51,116 nt of DNA, taken from contig JAHBMJ010004305.1 of NCBI GenBank assembly GCA_018398765.1, positions 30,681 to 81,796 on the forward strand, read 5' to 3'. The notes under the pieces are model-generated. The model ran no database searches and was not told where the DNA came from. It worked only from the letters and a program-made list of their open reading frames with translations. The translations under genes and the position numbers were made by a program. Positions 6,449-28,898 of the stretch are shown here, piece after piece. The DNA comes from Chromera velia (lineage: Eukaryota > Sar > Chromeraceae). Numbering within the stretch: position 1 is the stretch's first letter; every line of letters starts with the position of its first letter.

Positions 6449-6601
6449 TATTGAAAGAAGCCCTCAAGGATTGTGAAAGCAGACATACAAAGCACAAATG
6501 GAAGAAGGGGATGAAGAGAAGAGAGAAAAGTGCTGTCTCCCTCCTCTTCACACTCCTCTCTTATTCGTACCAGCAGTTCTTATTGCGGGTGCCATTAGGA
6601 T

Positions 6602-7170
6602 CATTAGGGGAGAGGAAGCCATGCAGAGGATCATTAGGGAGAGGAAGCCATGCAGAGGATCATTAGGGGAGAGGAAGCCATGCAGAGGATCATTAGGGGA
6701 GAGGAAGCCATGCAGAGGATCATTAGGGGAGAGGAAGCCATGCAGAGGATCATTAGGGGAGAGGAAGCCATGCAGAGGATCATTAGGGGAGAGGAAGCCA
6801 TGCAGAGGATCATTAGGGGAGAGGAAGCCATGCAGAGGATCATTAGGGGAGAGGAAGCCATGCAGAGGATCATTAGGGGAGAGGAAGCCATGCAGAGGAT
6901 CATTAGGGGAGAGGAAGCCATGCAGAGGATCATTAGGGGAGAGGAAGCCATGCAGAGGATCATTAGGGGAGAGGAAGCCATGCAGAGGATCATTAGGGGA
7001 GAGGAAGCCATGCAGAGGATCATTAGGGGAGAGGAAGCCATGCAGAGGATCATTAGGGGAGAGGAAGCCATGCAGAGGATCATTAGGGGAGAGGAAGCCA
7101 TGCAGAGGATCATTAGGGGAGAGGAAGCCATGCAGAGGATCATTAGGGGAGAGGAAGCCATGCAGAGGAT
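6602..7170. repeat. 30-bp minisatellite, 19 units
   Basis: The unit CATTAGGGGAGAGGAAGCCA plus TGCAGAGGAT repeats 19 times head to tail. Every unit is identical except the second (6632-6660), which lacks one G and is 29 bp. Such uniformity indicates recent expansion or gene conversion. Because 30 is a multiple of three, the array is open in several frames. On the minus strand it would encode the ten-residue unit DPLHGFLSPN. It abuts the 3' end of the membrane protein gene at 7170-10293. Confidence 0.95.
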
Positions 7171-8285
7171 CAGAAAGGGCCCGCCCAATCCCCTCCTCCA
7201 ATGATGGTGATCTGAAAAGATTCTTTCCACTTCCATCGATCCACCACGCTCCTTTCTCTCTCCCTCTCTCATCGAAAGGTTCCCCGGTTCCCCCCCCNAT
7301 GGTCCGTTCCAAAGCCCCCCTCCCCTGCATCCTCGCCCCCCCCCACATTCTTCATTCAGAAATGCATTACTCACCTGAGCATCCGACTGCCTCTCCCTCT
7401 CCGCTTTTCGTTTCACGTATTCTCCGTGAAGGTAGAATATCAACAGCCCCCCAAGAATCACTGCAAACATACATATATAAACACACAGCGGGAGAGGGAG
7501 AGAGAGAGAGAGAGAATTCACCAAAACGGTCCGAGAGCCTTCATCTGAACGCGACCCGCCTAAAATTTTCGCGCAAACGTTTCTGGATAGAAAACGAAGA
7601 CGAGGGTAGAGAGGACCAATTGAAAGGAGACAAAAGGGAAAAAACACAAACAGAAAATTACAAGCACCAGTGGGGGGAAGACAGAACTTTCATAGGTGCG
7701 CGTAAGAAACCACACCAACAAACAAGCCACACACTGATCACAAACCCCACTCAAGGAGACAAGGAGCACCCAATTGCGCAGATAAACGACAAACTGAGCA
7801 AACAGACACATACCGAAATGCTACTTACCACAAAGAATTGTTAGAACCACATACACAAAGATGTGACTTGACGTCTCCGTGACCCCTCCCGAACAGTCAA
7901 TCTGCTCTCACGTGGACACACACACACACACACACACATACACATACAACAAGAATATGATTTTTCCACCTTCAGAACGCACGCACGTGAGAGAAAGAAG
8001 GGAGGAAGACGAAAAGGAGAGAGACTACTTACCACTCCCGCACTCCCGAAAGAGACAAAGCGAGACAGGCAGGGGCCCTCAGAAGTTCCAAGGGACGATC
8101 AAGAAAGAATTGAAGGGATGCAAGGGAGCGAGGACCCGTCTCTCTCTGTCTGATTTGGTTTCTCCCTTCAGTTTACGCACAACCTTTCTGCCAATTGTTT
8201 CTCTCTACACTTTCTTTGGACTATCAGAGGACTTCTTCCTCTTTGCGGCTGCTGCCTCTGAGAGAGAGCGAGAGAGAGAGAGAGG

Positions 8286-21413: not shown

Positions 21414-22560
21414 CCGGGGCGCTTCCCCGCCAAGTATTACCCTCGACTTCTGTAGTCGCACTTCTGTAGTCGCCCCTCACCGCCGCCTAGCATTACCGCC
21501 CCCGATCGCCCGGGGCGCTTCCCCGCCAAGTATTACCCTCGACTTCTGTAGTCGCACTTCTGTAGTCGCCCCTCACCGCCGCCTTGCATTACCGCCCCCG
21601 ACCGCCTGGGGCGTTTCCCCGCCAAGTATTACCCTCGACTTCTGTAGTCACCCCTCACCGCCGCCTAGCATTGCCGCCCCCGACGGTCACCGCCCGGGGC
21701 GTTTCCCTGGCAAGTATTACCCTCGACTTCTGTAGTCGCACTTCTGTAGTCGCCCCTCACCGCCGCCTAGCATTGCCGCCCCCGACCGCCCGGGGCGCTT
21801 CCCCGCCAAGTATTACCCTCGACTTCTGTAGTCGCACTTCTGTAGTCGCCCCTTACCGCCGCCTACCATTGCCGCCCCCGACCGCCCGGGGCGCTTCCCC
21901 GCCAAGTATTACCCTCGACTTCTGTAGTTGCCCCTCACCGCCGCCTAGCATTGCCGCCCCCGACCGCCCGGGACGCTTCCCCGCTAAGTATTACCCTCGA
22001 GAGTCTCACTTCTATAGTCGCACTTCTGTAGTCGCCCCTCACCGCCGTCTAGCATTGCCGCCCCCGACCGCCCGGGGCGCTTCCCCGCCAAGTATTACCC
22101 TCGACTTCTGTAGTCGCACTTCTGTAGTCACGCCTCACCGCCGCCTAGCATTGCCGCCCCCGACCGCCCGGGGCGCTTCCCCACCAAGTATTACCCTCGA
22201 CTTCTGTAGTCGCACTTCTGTAGTCGCCCCTCACTGCCGTCTAGCATTGCCGCCCCCGACCGCCCGGGGCGCTTCCCCGCCAAGTATTACCCTCGACTTC
22301 TGTAGTCGCCCGTCACCGCCGCACCGCCGCTTAGCATTGCCGCCCCCGACCGCCCGGGGCGCTTCCCCGCTAAGTATTACCCTCGACTTCTGTAGTCGCA
22401 CTTCTGTAGTCACGCCTCACCGCCGCCTAGCATTGCCGCCCCCGACCGCCCGGGGCGCTTCCCCGCCAAGTATTACCCTCGACTTCTGCAGTCGCACTTC
22501 TGTAGTCACGCCTCACCGCCGCCTAGCATTGCCGCCCCCGACCGCTCGGGGCGCTTCCCG
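21414..22560. repeat. Satellite of about 96-bp units, 12 full copies and one partial
   Basis: Units start near 21414, 21510, 21605, 21693, 21790, 21886, 21968, 22072, 22168, 22264, 22352 and 22450, with a partial unit at about 22545. Spacing is mostly 95-98 bp, with shorter (82-88) and longer (104) variants caused by gain or loss of a CTTCTGTAGTCGCA subrepeat. A typical unit begins CGGGGCGCTTCCCCGCC, then AAGTATTAC, then CCTCGACTTCTGTAGTCG. All 12 full units keep AAGTATTAC exactly. The array begins 30 bp after the J-domain stop codon and ends about 50 bp before the Rep-like pseudogene. It stays open in one frame for about 1 kb because it lacks stops, not because it codes. Confidence 0.93.
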
Positions 22561-22875
22561 GCCAAATGTTACTAAGAAACGAAATATGATTTATCAAATT
22601 CTCCCAGTTATTTATTCTTTAGTATAATCTACTGCTACATCAAAGCGACGAAGCAGCTGGTTATTACATTCATTGGAAACTCCGTGGTAAGCCGTCTCTG
22701 GAGGAAACGCTGATATTAGAATAATGATCCACGGTCGAAACTGTCTAGAACCTCCTTTGAATTCAACTTTCGTCTTTTTTTTTTCTTATAGCGATCAAGT
22801 AGATCCAAAGCATCAGTGAAAGACCACCAAGATCCACGAAAATAATCAAGAATGACTCCTTGGTGAGCATTATAA

Positions 22876-23982
22876 CTAGGGGAGTCGACTTAAATTATTA
22901 TACGTAGACTTCATGACATAATATATAGAGTACCATACCTTTATAAATCACCTATACATCTAAAAGCTAGTTTTTTAGAATCTTTAGCTTTAATTACTTC
23001 CAACAAAGTCTACTTTATGTTGAGATGTTTTATATTACTGACGCAAATAATTATCAAAGATCAGTTGCCTCACATCATTAGAAAATAACTCATAATTGCG
23101 TAATCCGTAATAAATAACGTTTCTAGAGTGAACAGCCATAAACCCCGACCTTATCCTCCGCTACCCCCTCTGTATACATTTTTAACGAAGAATAGAATGT
23201 TATAGATTGGAGTGCTTACTTCGGATGTAAAAAGTATCCTTACAGATATGAGATCAACGGGCATATGACTCGCAAGGAGTCTACAAAAGTCTAGAAGGCG
23301 GGGGATTTCGCCAGAAAAATCCGTTGGAGAGGTATAGGGGCCCTCGCTATGAATACTTTTGAAGGAGATCATCTCCTAAAGGTTCATGGACGGGATGAGG
23401 TTGTCGCAGACAATGCAGCTGCAAAGGCATTTGTAACAGAGAAAGAGGGGGAAAAGGAGGAAGAGGAGGAAGAGGCGGATGAAGAGGAAGAGACGGAGGA
23501 AGAGGATGAGGAGTAAGAGGAGTGAAGAAAGGACATTAGGGAAGAATAAAGAGTATAGCAGGCTAGCATCGGCTAGCATTCGGAGCAGACTGCTTGTCTG
23601 TTATCCACCTGCCTACGTCCGCCTCCCTGCTTCTGTCTGCTGTCTGTCTGCCTGCATCTGCCTGCCTGTGTCTAGTAGAGTGTACCTGCATCTACCTGCC
23701 TGTCATATTCCCACCGGCTATCTTCATTGATCCCAGCTTTCAACTTTAAAATATGTCCGTAATCGTGTAATCTATAATTAATGAGAAGTGACATCATGTT
23801 TAAGGGGGGTTATCTCTAAATAATTTGAAGTAATCATCACCAAAACCGTCATAAAACAGCTTTACTAGCTCCACTTAACACTTTTGATATGATAATTAGC
23901 GAGTAAACAAGTTTTTTTTAGTGGTTTACTATTTTTTCATATTGGGATATAGGATCGTAATTTATTAAGTCAATCCCCCTAG
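22876..23982. mobile_element. 1.1-kb DNA transposon inserted in the Rep pseudogene
   Basis: The ends are inverted repeats: CTAGGGGAGTCGACTTAA at the left and CTAGGGGGATTGACTTAA (complement strand) at the right, 15 of 18 matching. The flanks GCATTATAA (22867-22875) and GCATCATAA (23983-23991) are a 9-bp target duplication with one difference. Removing the element and one flank brings the two Rep blocks into the same order with no gap, so the insertion is directly visible. A 9-bp duplication fits Mutator-like or Merlin-like elements. The interior has no recognised transposase, so it is non-autonomous or decayed. Confidence 0.85.
23295..23516 (+). CDS. Short acidic reading frame inside the 1.1-kb transposon, possible gene fragment
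   Basis: A 74-codon frame opens after a TAG at 23292-23294 and ends at a TAA at 23514-23516. The ATG inside it is at 23349, giving 55 residues. It reads GDHLLKVHGRDEVVADNAAAK and then an almost pure Glu/Asp tail. Composition looks coding rather than random, but no family is recognised and a splice acceptor is not obvious. It may be the remnant of a transposon protein or a captured exon. Confidence 0.3.
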   Translation, partial: KAGDFARKIRWRGIGALAMNTFEGDHLLKVHGRDEVVADNAAAKAFVTEKEGEKEEEEEEADEEEETEEEDEE

Positions 23983-24770
23983 GCATCATAACCGTCCCAC
24001 CATCTCGTTCCACGCGATTTCCGATAATAATTGTCACCAAACAAGAACTGCATCACCAAATCAGCTGTCCGACTTTTCCCAGTACCAGTCGCCCCATGAA
24101 AACAAAGAACAATAGGTTTCCATTTCCTGGGAGGTTCGTGATGGTCAAGAAAACGTTTGGCAACCTTGATCTGCTGATGGTTCCCTATCCGCGAGACTGC
24201 ACGCAAACCACTATCTAGAGCAAGCTGTCGATTGTGATCTAAATCTGACCGGTTTCCTTGCTTAAAAGAATCCCCTTGCTCCACGAAGTCACCTGATCTA
24301 GCACCTGACTTCTTGCAGTACTGGATAGCCTGTTGCGCTGTGCCTGCTCTGTGTTTAATGTGGGCAGAGTTGGTGAGACGTCTCTTCAGGCTTTCAAACT
24401 TGCTTGGATGTTTCAACTCGCAGTACCCTTGTAAATGAGGTGTCCCACGATCAGAAATCTCCTTTCCAAAGACAATGTAAGAAAACGGAAGGTTCTGTAG
24501 CCGCTTGACGTCCTCGTCTGTCCAGTTATTAATGGTGAAACAGAAGTTTCAGAGTTGAAGTTGTGGCATTGTTACGATGGTTCTTTTTTATAAGGAGACG
24601 GCTTCTCTTTAAGCTGATTTGATTATAGTTATGCGATCATCCCAGGCGTCCACACGGGGGGGGTATATGAGGGTTGCCGGCGGCGGGGTGGCATACAATC
24701 CTGGGAACCCCCCCCTGGGTCCGATTCGGACGGCGGCGGGATGGCTTCACGCAGCCGAGACCCCCCCCAG

Positions 24771-24817: not shown

Positions 24818-25044
24818 TAAGGAACCTCAAAACCTTCTGCTGTCAATCAATGAATCACATGGTCTCGCACAGCAATGCAGTTGATATCAGACCAATGTCC
24901 ATGATCAGCACAATTCATTGTTCTCGCGATTTGTTCATACGATGATCATACAGTATGTCAGTTTCAGGTGTTTGCATTGAACTCTTTGTTTCATTTTGTC
25001 AGCCTATCGTCAGCCTTAACTCTCTTTGGCCGTTTCATTTGAAG

Positions 25045-28000
25045 ATGGCCTCTCGCAAGGCAAAGTCTGCCTGGACTGAAGCAGACCAGCAGACTCTTAC
25101 AGAGCAGAATGGCACACCTGCGGCGGACGGGCAGTCTATTGACTGTGATGTATGCCACGTCAAGATCAAATTGAAGAACGCCTTCCACCTCCATGAATTC
25201 TATCACACAAAGGAGACAGTCATTCAGAAACCGAAAGGAGACGGCGAGGGGGGAGAAGGTAAAGAAGAGGGAAAGGACGATGCAGAGATGGGAGGAGTGG
25301 AAGAGAGAGATGATGGGGATAAAGTGATGGATGACTCAGAAACTCAGACAATCGTCACGATCCATGGACACTGTAGCACCGATAAGCACAAAGCCGGTCT
25401 TGTAGCAAAGAAGTCTGGGAAGAAGCAGAAAACTCTGTCTCAAGCCTGGGGTACGCCAGTGAGCGTGAAAAAGAAGTCCCGATCAGAGCAGCCTGACTCA
25501 ACCGCAGCCTCAGCTTCAGCTTCAGCCTCAGCTTCAGCCCCAGCTTCAGTCTCAGGTTCAGCCTCAGCTTCAGCCTCAGCAGCAGCGAGTTCTGCAAAAT
25601 CCGCCCCCTCCCAATCGTCCGGGCCCCCCCCCTGTTTGGGAATCCAGTACCTTTCCGCTTTAACAACCCATCATTCTTCATAATTGAAGAACAAACAACA
25701 TATTTCGCGCTGGCATTGAAGTATTCCAAAGACGGAGAGCTTTCTCAGTTTGAAGGAAAGGTTTCTACTATGGGTGTTTTGAAAGGGCTCACGTCTCTTC
25801 ATACGGCAAGGTGTGCAAATGAGGGGTCGACGAGGACATGCCAGTTGGTCTCTTCCTCCAGGATTGGAGATAACCGGTTGGAAGCAGCCGGCTTTCAGGC
25901 AGGCGCACAGTTCCGTTGGACCCAGTGTCATTCTTGTTATGACAAGAACAAGAATATAACCTTCGCAAAGTCCCCCATGGGTCTGAAGAAGCCATGGCTG
26001 AAGAAGATACAGACTGTCGAAGACATCTGCAAATGAGGGGTCGGTCTGACTCAGAATGAGAGAGACACAGCGGGGGGGAGGGAGGGAGAGAGAGAGGGAG
26101 GGATGAAGGGAAAGAGCAGAGAGGGAAAGAGGAAGGGAGGGAGGGAAGGTTTGAGGTTTTGGCTCAAGCCTTCTTTTTGAAAGTTATTCATTTCGATGTG
26201 TGTTTGTTCGTTTGTTTCTTTTTATGTTTGTAGGTGTATACACATGAAAAGGAGCTGCACGTTCTCAATATGAAACTCGCATGGAGGGAAGAGGATGGAA
26301 CTCTGTCAAACGAGGAGAGAGCAGAGATTGTGAAGCGTATCACAGAACTCTAGCCTCTTCATGAAGTCAGTCAAATCTGATCAAGATCTCACCCATGTTC
26401 CCCCTCTTTCTTTTTGTACTGCCCCCCCCCCCCTTCCCTTTCCACCCCTTTCTCTTCCTCTTTATGAATCGAAATCACCCCTCTCAGCCTAAGAGCCCTC
26501 TAAAGTCTGGTGTCCTCAAGTTTTTATTTGACATGCATAATGGATTTAACACTGTTGGTCCTTCTCTCCCGTTTTCTTTTCTTTCTTTATGCAGGCTGAA
26601 CAACGTGCTGTTGAAGTGTGGGTTGAGGCGAACAGCGGGACAAAGGGAAACGCAGCAAAGGCGGTGAATCCTGAGAAGTGGGGGGAGTTAGAGAAGAGGG
26701 TGAAGAACTTCAAAGATCGTCGCACCAACGTTAAGCATCTGAAGCTTTTAGACTTTTTAGAGACAGACGACTTCATGAAGAAGGTGATTCCGCTCTACAA
26801 AGAGGGGAAACTGGATGGAACCCCATGGTTGGATCTCTCTCGTGCCTTTGTCAACAGGTATTTGGGGTGGAAAAACGTCCCTCTGGGGGAGCAAGGCTCC
26901 GCGCTGGTACATGCTCTGTGTCTTGCGGGGGGTGAGGCGGTTCGAAATGATCTCTCGACTTACTTGGTCGGAATCAGCGAGAGATGGTGGAGACGATCGA
27001 AATCGAAATATGAGGGGGGGGTTGAAAACATCTACGACATTGAGCCTCCAGATCTAGCAAAACACTTAGAGACGGGAATGAAACGGGCCCCTGCAGCCTG
27101 GAGGAAGGACGGAAAGTACGGTGCAACTCTCTGCATGGATGGAACAAAGATCACGAGGAAGCACGTCTACTACCTACGGTTAGTCATTCTCTCTCTTCTC
27201 TTTCTTCCTGTTTCTTTTTCTCTATTTCTTTATTTCTCTCTCTCTCTTGAGTTTCTCTCGTATTCTTTTTTTTGTTTTTCTTTTCCCTCTCTGCCATTTC
27301 TTCTGTCGTTTTCTCTGATTCTTTATTCACTCTGTGTGGCTAACTAACTGCATGCGACTGCATGCAGGGTTTGTCAATGGATTGGAGGCTGCTACCCGAA
27401 GCAGTGTCTGTCAGGTGAGGACTACGACCCCTCTCACAACCCTCTCCAGATCAACGAGCTTGCGGAATACGTCACAACAGGGTTGCTTGTCCTCCACGAC
27501 GTGCGTCTCACCGTTATCGTTCTTGGCGCGAAGCTGCACAAAGAGCTCCTCTTGAATGATGAGGGAAAATTCAGGGATGACCTTATTGAGTGTGTTCTCA
27601 ACTACCCGTCGATCAAGCTGCTCAACGTCTGCTTTGACGGTGACACCGTGCAAGGCCCGTGGGTTGTGAAACACATCGAGAAGTTCCTGAGCGGTGAGAT
27701 TTCCTACATCGCTTCCAGTTGTACACCGCATGTCAGAAAGTGCATCCACCGTGCGGTGGTAATGGGATCCTGCCTCCTCTCGATTGGCCCTTTCCCCATT
27801 GATGCAGGCCTCTTTCCTTTTCTCCCCTCTGTTCCAGTCCGCGTGTAGAGGCCAAAAGATCACACCTCTGACTTTACGACCTGGCTGTTTTCTTCCCCAG
27901 CGGCAATCAAAGACGTGGCTGAGTATGAAAACATTCATCCATTCATGAAGGCGGGTGTTCTCCTCATTTAGATTGCTCTCCGAATCAATTGTCATCTCTC

Positions 28001-28898
28001 TCTTTCGAACAAAGGATTAGACCGAACAAGTCAGAATGCGGCTGAGGAAAACGTTCGAGCCAGGTGGATTTCTGGCACGTTGACTGAAAGTGTGGAGGGG
28101 TATGCAGAGGCCACCCGCAGGAATCACCGTTCAGCGTGGATTGGATCCACAGTTACATATGCACAGACTTCGACCCCTCAGCGAGAGAACAACAGCCCCA
28201 TCGAACATCACCATGGCGGTGTTCGCTTTCTTTCTTCCTCGCGTGAGTGTTCAGCAGCAGGCTACTTAGACCTGTGCCGCAAACGAACTTTAAAGGAAGA
28301 GACGCGGGCAAAATTGGAGAGGGGGAAGGCAGAGAGAGAAAAAAGAGAGGAAACAAAAGGAGATTTAGGGATGGACGAGTCAGTCGACGCTGCACCTGTG
28401 CGTGTCGAAGGGGCAAGCAGGTACAGAGAGCTCGCGCTTGACACAAGAGAGACAGCAAAACTGCTAACGTTTCTTTCAGAAGAGGTCACTTGTTTTGTTG
28501 TGAGCAAACAAGCAACAAAGAGTGTGGGAGTGGTACTTGAAAAGCTTGGCATTCCTGTTCCCAGGTTTGCTAGTCAAAAGTATCAGAATTTCAAAGAGAT
28601 GGCAGTTGTGTGGAAAGAAGTGACGGGAACTGCAAGAGGTGGTAGAGGGGGGGGTCAGACTTCTACTGCTGCTGCTGCGACCGTCATGGCCGTAGAAACG
28701 ACGGCAGACGCCATTATCAGAGAGAAAGAAGTGAGGCCTGCCGACTTTAACAGAGATGGCGACGACTTGTCAGACAATGACGGCTGTAAACATGATCTTG
28801 CAGAGGAGATGAGGGGGGTTGAGGGAAAGGATGATCTTAAGGTTGATGAGGAGATCAATCTTGATGAAATCCAGAGGCTTTTGGAAGAGCATTTATGA
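25045..28898 (+). CDS. Large zinc-finger protein of unknown function, possibly transposase-derived; one-base lesion in exon 1
   Basis: Proposed exons are 25045-26015, 26234-26329, 26595-27178, 27368-27693, 27901-27954 and 28015-28898. All junctions are phase-consistent, giving about 971 residues if one base is added to a C run at 25624-25632, where the frame breaks. A classical C2H2 finger (C-x2-C-x12-H-x3-H) occupies residues 34-54. Basic KKSGKKQKTLSQAW and a Ser/Ala repeat follow. Exon 3 encodes a conserved-looking globular region (VEVWVEANSG...SRAFVNRYLG...LCMDGTKITRK), continued by exon 4 (VCQWIGGCYPKQC...LLNVCFDGDTV). The two Asp-containing strands could be part of a DDE-type catalytic core, but the third acidic residue cannot be placed and no known transposase family is matched with confidence. 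No terminal inverted repeats flank it. The first donor (gtcgaa) and second donor (gtgaag) are weak. The C-terminus is acidic and ends LDEIQRLLEEHL. Confidence 0.55.

What the first reader, a model, noticed from the sequence alone, without database searches (positions are those of the whole stretch)
22612..24569. Endogenous CRESS-DNA-virus Rep gene in an algal or protist chromosome
All Rep landmarks lie in order on one strand: HUH motifs I-III, Walker A, a Walker B-like segment, the DRY/KGG region and the C-terminal arginine motif, over about 280 codons. It is embedded among host intron-bearing genes and carries three independent breaks, so it is a fossil. It records contact between this lineage and a circular single-stranded DNA virus or a Rep-bearing plasmid.
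Basis: partly seen in the sequence, partly recalled or inferred. Interest (0 to 1): 0.88.

Follow-up and report, generated by a model that had tools for sequence, protein, structure and literature searches.

The report
Rep-carrying mobile element in Chromera
The broken virus-type replication gene in this chromerid alga is real, and it belongs to a small repeated family of mobile elements whose ends are inverted tandem arrays of a short sequence that looks like the enzyme's own cutting site.

Summary
The Rep is real. Its open N-terminal piece (window 23979-24548, minus) matches Viral_Rep at 2e-15 and is about 49% identical to Reps on 1.65-2.04-kb CRESS-type contigs. It is broken by an early stop, a 1.1-kb inserted repeat and a frame change. 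The host is Chromera velia, where Rep relics were already reported (Kinsella 2023).

The surroundings look new. All four Rep copies found in the held genome abut the same 96-bp tandem array (window 21414-22572). In 5 of 5 contigs with two main arrays, these face each other and bound an element. In three of them Rep lies with a AAA-type ATPase gene (only a piece in C2348) and a chromodomain gene. The array unit carries AAGTATTAC, a CRESS-type nonanucleotide, and 14 of 21 independent outer ends lie within 4 nt of the expected nick AAGTATT|AC. Two of two testable sites show no target duplication. Rep evolved under purifying selection (dN/dS 0.105-0.152) between two lineages.

Best reading: an inverted-array mobile element carrying a CRESS Rep, which probably processes its ends; the window copy is dead and truncated. 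Against: the nonanucleotide is not in a hairpin loop, 7 of 21 ends lie elsewhere, and a recently duplicated copy lacks Rep. A truffle element (Liu 2011) is the precedent.

The parts
21414..22572 (+). Tandem array, about 12.3 copies of a 96-bp unit, most carrying AAGTATTACC; proposed array of Rep origins and one end of the element. Its outer border here is not at the proposed nick (phase -25)
   Evidence: TRF; genome-wide pattern searches; array map; border phase
22612..22785 (-). Rep, C-terminal piece (KGG region and arginine motif)
   Evidence: ORF list, aligned by eye with homologues; no Pfam hit alone
22716..22889 (-). Rep, Walker B region and LLDRY piece, in another frame
   Evidence: ORF list; finds the other three Rep contigs; no Rep hit in Pfam alone
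22876..23982 (.). 1.1-kb mobile repeat inserted in Rep: inverted ends CTAGGGG, 9-bp flanking direct repeat with one mismatch (22867-22875 and 23983-23991)
   Evidence: Inverted repeat I1; uninterrupted site in 3 of 3 other copies; relatives elsewhere
23979..24548 (-). Rep, open N-terminal piece: HUH motifs I-III and Walker A
   Evidence: Viral_Rep 2.2e-15; 397 homologues at E <= 1e-3; PCV2-type Rep 6e-17
24549..24568 (-). Start codon region of Rep, followed by the early in-frame stop
   Evidence: Sequence
24570..24623 (-). Last stretch shared with the other Rep copies, 5' of Rep; the rest of the element (ATPase, chromodomain gene, second array) is missing here
   Evidence: Homology ends; no match of the two other genes on this contig

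Best explanation
The window holds a dead, truncated copy of a repeated mobile element of Chromera velia. The fuller form (C3426, C3521 and, with only a piece of the ATPase, C2348) reads: tandem array, Rep, AAA/ATPase_2 gene, chromodomain gene with a possible GIY-YIG-like N-terminus, inverted tandem array. Shown: this structure, one shared array/Rep junction, outer ends concentrated at one point of the array unit, no target duplication at the two testable sites, and past purifying selection on Rep. Inferred: each array unit is a Rep origin; Rep nicks AAGTATT|AC on opposite strands at the two inverted arrays and stays bound to the new 5' ends (5'-ACCC...); these ends are joined to broken target DNA, which leaves no target duplication; the chromodomain protein helps to choose or open the target. 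Tandem arrays would grow and shrink by nicking and rejoining at neighbouring origins.
For: 4 of 4 Rep copies found abut the same array within 1-2 bp of the same point. In 5 of 5 contigs with two main arrays these are convergent inverted pairs. 14 of 21 independent outer ends lie within 4 nt of the proposed nick, against 2.0 expected under a uniform phase, P 2.5e-10 (one of the 14 assigned by eye). AAGTATTAC fits NAGNATTNC, one of the published CRESS origin search terms (PMC9973303, passages); chance of NANTATTAC at a fixed position 8e-6, or 1.5e-3 anywhere in the unit on either strand, by base composition. No target duplication at 2 of 2 sites with an uninterrupted relative. Rep dN/dS 0.105-0.152 at dS 0.96-1.10 in 4 of 4 between-lineage pairs.
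Against: The nonanucleotide is unpaired between two short hairpins, not in a hairpin loop, in 4 of 4 flank lengths folded. 7 of 21 ends, the window's included, lie elsewhere. The nonanucleotide is the most conserved 9-mer of the unit (65 units, rank 1 of 88), but only rank 16 of 88 once base class is allowed for. C3114, 99.2% identical to C1667 over 1,160 bp, has no Rep; C1667's contig ends before the place where Rep would be. C1710 has two arrays and the other two genes but no Rep; C3596 has two arrays and none of the three genes. About 78 distant matches of the chromodomain protein exist in contigs without Rep. All four Reps found are broken. A transposon with fixed ends and another enzyme would also give ends at one phase.
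Confidence: 0.5

Rival explanations
1. Rep is cargo. The element is an inverted-repeat (foldback-like) transposon moved by the chromodomain protein, with or without the ATPase. Its long tandem-repeat ends contain a nonanucleotide by chance. Rep came in from a virus and was carried along.
For: C3114 lacks Rep although nearly identical to C1667. The chromodomain gene is the one found in most copies, and some 78 distant matches lie in contigs without Rep. No stem-loop around the nonanucleotide.
Against: Rep was under purifying selection across both lineages, which dead cargo is not. No target duplication at 2 of 2 sites, unusual for a DDE transposon (general knowledge). The ends fall at the expected nick. 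Two distant relatives looked at (C1089, C1735) carry no array.
Confidence: 0.28
2. The element is an extrachromosomal replicon (virus or plasmid of the alga) with Rep and inverted origins, and the genomic copies are accidental integrations of forms opened at the nick.
For: No target duplication and no target preference by eye; ends at the nick; exchange between lineages in the right half; closest Reps sit on contigs of CRESS-genome size.
Against: No capsid gene recognised among the core ORFs scanned. A chromodomain suggests a chromatin-directed genomic element (inference). The two core proteins searched match only Chromera velia entries. One viral-contig relative only, 31% identical.
Confidence: 0.15
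3. Plain viral fossils: independent insertions of a draupnirvirus Rep, with the arrays as unrelated neighbours.
For: Rep relics of C. velia were reported as draupnirvirus endogenous elements (PMC10193959, passages). All four copies found are broken.
Against: Same array/Rep junction in 4 of 4 copies; inverted arrays on both sides in 5 of 5 two-array contigs; uninterrupted sites for two whole elements.
Confidence: 0.05

Closest known systems
Geminivirus-like transposon of Tuber melanosporum (Liu et al. 2011, PMC3198968; passages and section 8 read)
   Same: Repeated element in a eukaryote genome with a Rep gene, partner ORFs, a simple repeat, terminal inverted repeats (37 bp) and no obvious target duplications
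   Different: There the Rep is geminivirus-like, the partners are called transposases and, in the text read, ends are not linked to a Rep origin ('nonanucleotide' and 'tandem' occur 0 times). Here the Rep is circovirus-like, the partners are an ATPase and a chromodomain gene, and the ends are inverted tandem arrays with the nonanucleotide
Draupnirviridae-type Rep relics in Chromera velia and Polymyxa betae (Kinsella et al. 2023, PMC10193959; abstract and passages read)
   Same: CRESS Rep relics in the same species; some of their sequences are probably these loci
   Different: The main text speaks of endogenous viral elements; 'transpos', 'nonanucleotide' and 'stem-loop' occur 0 times in it. 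Their supplement was not seen
Helitrons (PMC6668415 and PMC10741241, passages)
   Same: HUH enzyme, no target duplication
   Different: Helitrons lack inverted ends and insert between A and T; their Reps do not cluster with CRESS Reps
Replitrons (PMC10741241, passages; the original paper was not read)
   Same: Eukaryotic transposons with an HUH endonuclease
   Different: No inverted ends, short direct terminal repeats, target duplications of 2-8 bp
Foldback elements of Drosophila (recalled, no call)
   Same: Long inverted ends made of tandem repeats
   Different: As recalled they make 9-bp target duplications and carry no Rep

Membership tests
CRESS-DNA virus Rep | HUH endonuclease motifs I-III plus superfamily-3 helicase motifs in one protein | tested here: met
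   the helicase end only in separate pieces
CRESS-DNA virus Rep | Groups with CRESS Reps rather than plasmid or Helitron Reps | tested here: inconclusive
   Nearest 120 proteins are Viral_Rep proteins on contigs mostly of 1-3 kb and a quick tree nests the window piece among them; no labelled plasmid or Helitron outgroup was included
Draupnirviridae | Rep inside the Draupnirviridae clade | not tested
   No labelled references at hand; assignment of C. velia relics rests on PMC10193959
CRESS origin of replication | Nonanucleotide of the CRESS type | tested here: met
   AAGTATTAC in the unit; 70 exact copies in the mapped arrays; fits NAGNATTNC
[quoted passage not shown]
   Unpaired between two short hairpins in 4 of 4 folds
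ssDNA-virus-like transposon (kind of Liu 2011) | Repeated unit with Rep inside inverted terminal repeats, no target duplication | tested here: met
   3 of 5 two-array elements hold Rep; no duplication at 2 of 2 testable sites
Helitron | RepHel protein, no inverted ends, insertion between A and T | tested here: not met
   Inverted ends; Viral_Rep type enzyme; flanks vary
Replitron | Short direct terminal repeats, 2-8 bp target duplication | tested here: not met
   Inverted arrays and no duplication seen
GIY-YIG nuclease (partner gene) | GIY-YIG / T5orf172 domain | tested here: inconclusive
   T5orf172 E 0.028 and 0.069, below cut-off; not seen in the two distant relatives; PDB profile search finds only chromodomain-type chains
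Chromodomain protein (partner gene) | Chromo domain above Pfam cut-off | tested here: met
   3.3e-10 and 2.9e-10; profile against PDB 7e-11

The most novel reading that the evidence does not exclude
A self-mobile eukaryotic transposon driven by a CRESS-virus-type Rep: two inverted tandem arrays of the Rep's own origin form the ends, Rep nicks both at AAGTATT|AC on opposite strands, and the bound 5' ends insert without target duplication, helped by a chromodomain partner. It would be a third type of eukaryotic HUH transposon beside Helitrons and Replitrons.
Probability: 0.37. Interest if true: 0.88.

Novelty: new variant of a known kind. Interest (0 to 1): 0.68.

Why it matters
Whether replicases of ssDNA viruses can become transposon enzymes in eukaryotes is open. 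Liu 2011 offered inverted-repeat elements with a Rep, but, in the text read, no link between the Rep and the element's ends. Here Rep, nonanucleotide and ends coincide, which makes the idea testable in a culturable alga related to the apicomplexans. It also warns that Rep counts in protist genomes need not count infections: the four C. velia Rep copies found here are members of one mobile family.

Tried and rejected
Insert in Rep as an intron: rejected; it has inverted ends, a 9-bp flanking repeat and relatives elsewhere. Capsid gene in the core: none recognised among the ORFs scanned. Sequence outside the arrays of C1188, C1710 and C937, also seen in C3114, as part of the element: rejected for the stretch tested, whose parts match many contigs. 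Conservation of the nonanucleotide as independent proof: rejected after allowing for base class. Close viral relatives: none in IMG/VR with the window piece; one genome, 31% identical, with the profile. It has AGTATTAC about 85 bp upstream of its Rep match, but 8 of 200 shuffles reach its three motif matches. The careful tree did not finish; only the quick tree is used. The 18S search failed three times and was dropped once named C. velia.

Literature (open PMC papers only): listings. No paper held 'Chromera' with 'rolling-circle' and 'transposon', or 'CRESS' with 'transposable element', 'nonanucleotide' and 'endogenous'; of 11 papers found none concerns this by title. That this element is undescribed rests on these searches only; the TE supplement of the Chromera genome paper (PMC4501334, passages) was not seen.

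Row choices: 22 ends were aligned. C3700 repeats C3114 and was not given to it. C2348 right and C3432 share a flank and count once, giving 21. C3117 is left out because its contig ends in the array. For contigs with one array, 'outer' is read from the orientation seen in the two-array contigs. itself puts 12 of 22 within 3 nt; C3426 left and C3521 right lie at 4 nt; C3596 right was moved by eye from +21 to 0 because its first unit has an internal gap. A 74-bp array fragment at C2348 1614-1687 was not counted as an end. The joins were set a few bases off the final borders, so the absence of a duplication is read by eye.

Full report
What is there. The minus strand of 22612-24569 holds a CRESS-type Rep in pieces. 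The open 189-aa piece 23979-24548 matches Viral_Rep at 2.2e-15, a PCV2-type Rep chain at 6e-17 and 397 of 423 candidate proteins at E <= 1e-3, of which 120 were listed. The best twelve are 46-49% identical over 99-100% of the piece and lie on contigs of 1.65-2.04 kb, the size of complete CRESS genomes. The helicase part follows in two overlapping frames, 22716-22889 and 22612-22785. An in-frame stop follows the start codon closely. A 1.1-kb repeat (22876-23982) sits between Walker A and the Walker B region. It has inverted ends, a 9-bp flanking repeat with one mismatch, an uninterrupted site in 3 of 3 other copies and relatives elsewhere.

Host. The window lies in a 177.8-Mb, 4040-contig assembly. 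The two core proteins of the element that I searched match only entries named Chromera velia CCMP2878: one at 88%, and four at 82-100% over 23-59% of the query. The published assembly has 193.66 Mb in 5953 scaffolds (PMC4501334, passages), so part is missing here.

Four copies, one junction. Six-frame search finds Rep in four contigs: C3527 (the window), C3521, C2348 and C3426; two further matches have E 0.8-1 and are chance level. The C-terminal piece finds the same four, plus C380 at E 3.3. In 4 of 4 the Rep 3' side abuts the same 96-bp tandem array within 1-2 bp of the same point.

Element anatomy. Arrays were mapped in eleven contigs. Five hold two main arrays, and in 5 of 5 these are convergent inverted pairs: C1710, C2348, C3426, C3521 and C3596, 3.8 to 15 kb from outer edge to outer edge. 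C3426 and C3521 hold array, Rep, AAA/ATPase_2 gene (opposite strand to Rep), chromodomain gene (same strand as Rep), array; C2348 has the same order with only a piece of the ATPase. C1710 has the ATPase and chromodomain genes, interrupted by an assembly gap, but no Rep. C3596 has none of the three. The window copy has one array and Rep. The chromodomain is clear (3.3e-10 and 2.9e-10; profile 7e-11). A GIY-YIG-like N-terminus is only suggested (E 0.028 and 0.069, below cut-off).

Ends. Most units contain AAGTATTACC; the mapped arrays hold 70 exact AAGTATTAC. A study of circovirus Rep speaks of a nonanucleotide cleavage motif in a hairpin loop, uses a TATTATTACC substrate and searches CRESS genomes with terms of which NAGNATTNC fits this one (PMC9973303, passages). 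The exact cut (TATT|AC) is recalled. Of 21 independent outer ends, 14 begin within 4 nt of it: seven read ACCCTCGAC exactly, three with one substitution, four more loosely. Seven lie elsewhere: C1710 left, C198, C2348 left, C3426 right, the window, C3597 and C1667. Expected under a uniform phase: 2.0; P 2.5e-10. A transposon with fixed ends and another enzyme would also cluster, so the weight lies in the coincidence with the motif: 8e-6 at a fixed position, or 1.5e-3 anywhere in the unit times about 9/96 for the end.

Insertion. For C3521 an uninterrupted relative of the site exists in C198, and for C3596 one in C3527, at 75-83% identity. Neither shows a target duplication; one or two bases are lost or shared. 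At that divergence a duplication of 1-2 bp cannot be excluded.

Selection. Between lineage I (C3527, C3426) and II (C3521, C2348) Rep has dS 0.96-1.10 and dN/dS 0.105-0.152 in 4 of 4 pairs; within lineages dS 0.165 and 0.196, dN/dS 0.41 and 0.48. The ATPase of C3521 differs from four others at dS 1.8-2.8 and dN/dS 0.19-0.30; those four differ among themselves at dS 0.22-0.42 and dN/dS 0.44-0.61. The chromodomain gene differs at dS 0.13-0.38 and dN/dS 0.22-0.52 over 15 of 15 pairs of six copies. I infer that the left half is old and that the right half was exchanged between lineages. The counts pool separate matches, and the large dS values are rough.

Mobility. C3114 and C1667 are 99.2% identical over 1,160 bp with different outer flanks, so the element was duplicated or moved recently. 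C3114 has no Rep; C1667's contig ends before the place where Rep would be. All nine contigs with a closely related chromodomain gene (78% or more; C3700 is the C3114 locus) carry array units beside it: C1710, C1667, C3114, C3426, C2348, C3597, C3521, C3117, C1188. C1647 (61-74%) was not read. Of 94 matches to this protein about 78 are more distant; two of their contigs (C1089, C1735) were looked at in part and showed no array.

Placement. A quick tree of 122 rows puts the window piece with the other open C. velia piece at 100%, among the CRESS Reps. Assignment to Draupnirviridae rests on Kinsella 2023, who report nine Rep-like sequences from C. velia and Polymyxa betae together.

Judgement. 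A repeated inverted-array element that carries Rep is well supported (about 0.9). That Rep processes its ends is the best reading but not shown (about 0.5): the missing stem-loop, the seven off-phase ends and the Rep-less copies count against it. The kind has a precedent in the truffle geminivirus-like transposon (PMC3198968, section 8); origin-like arrays as ends and the partner genes make this a new variant.

Noticed in passing
window 24946-28898 (+): A multi-exon gene beside the Rep, at least 22 matches of one exon in the genome (best other copy 92%); by eye a BED-like zinc finger and acidic motifs of a transposase, but no Pfam match. Probably another mobile element that borders the truncated copy.
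   Followed up: partly
window 22876-23982: The 1.1-kb repeat inserted in Rep belongs to a family with a 9-bp flanking repeat (Mutator-like by that sign); one near-complete relative in C2078 and partial ones in other contigs.
   Followed up: partly
C1735 16703-17242 and 18484-19410; C1089 17873-18850: Distant relatives of the chromodomain gene lie in other contigs; in C1735 one is 1.2 kb from an ORF that by eye resembles a viral primase-helicase (no Pfam hit). They may mark another mobile or viral element family.
   Followed up: partly
C198 41395-45748, C3521 7888-8412 and 20693-23986, C297 35859-39628: A second multi-kb repeat that hosts or borders three of the array loci; not classified.
   Followed up: partly
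window 6597-7172: A 30-bp tandem repeat, 19.2 copies at 99% match, open in one frame over all copies (GEEAMQRIIR repeated), next to an assembly gap.
   Followed up: no
65 array units in 12 arrays: In the decayed arrays G and C positions agree with the unit at 92% on average and A and T positions at 99%, as if C-to-T type changes dominate; this could reflect cytosine methylation of repeats.
   Followed up: no
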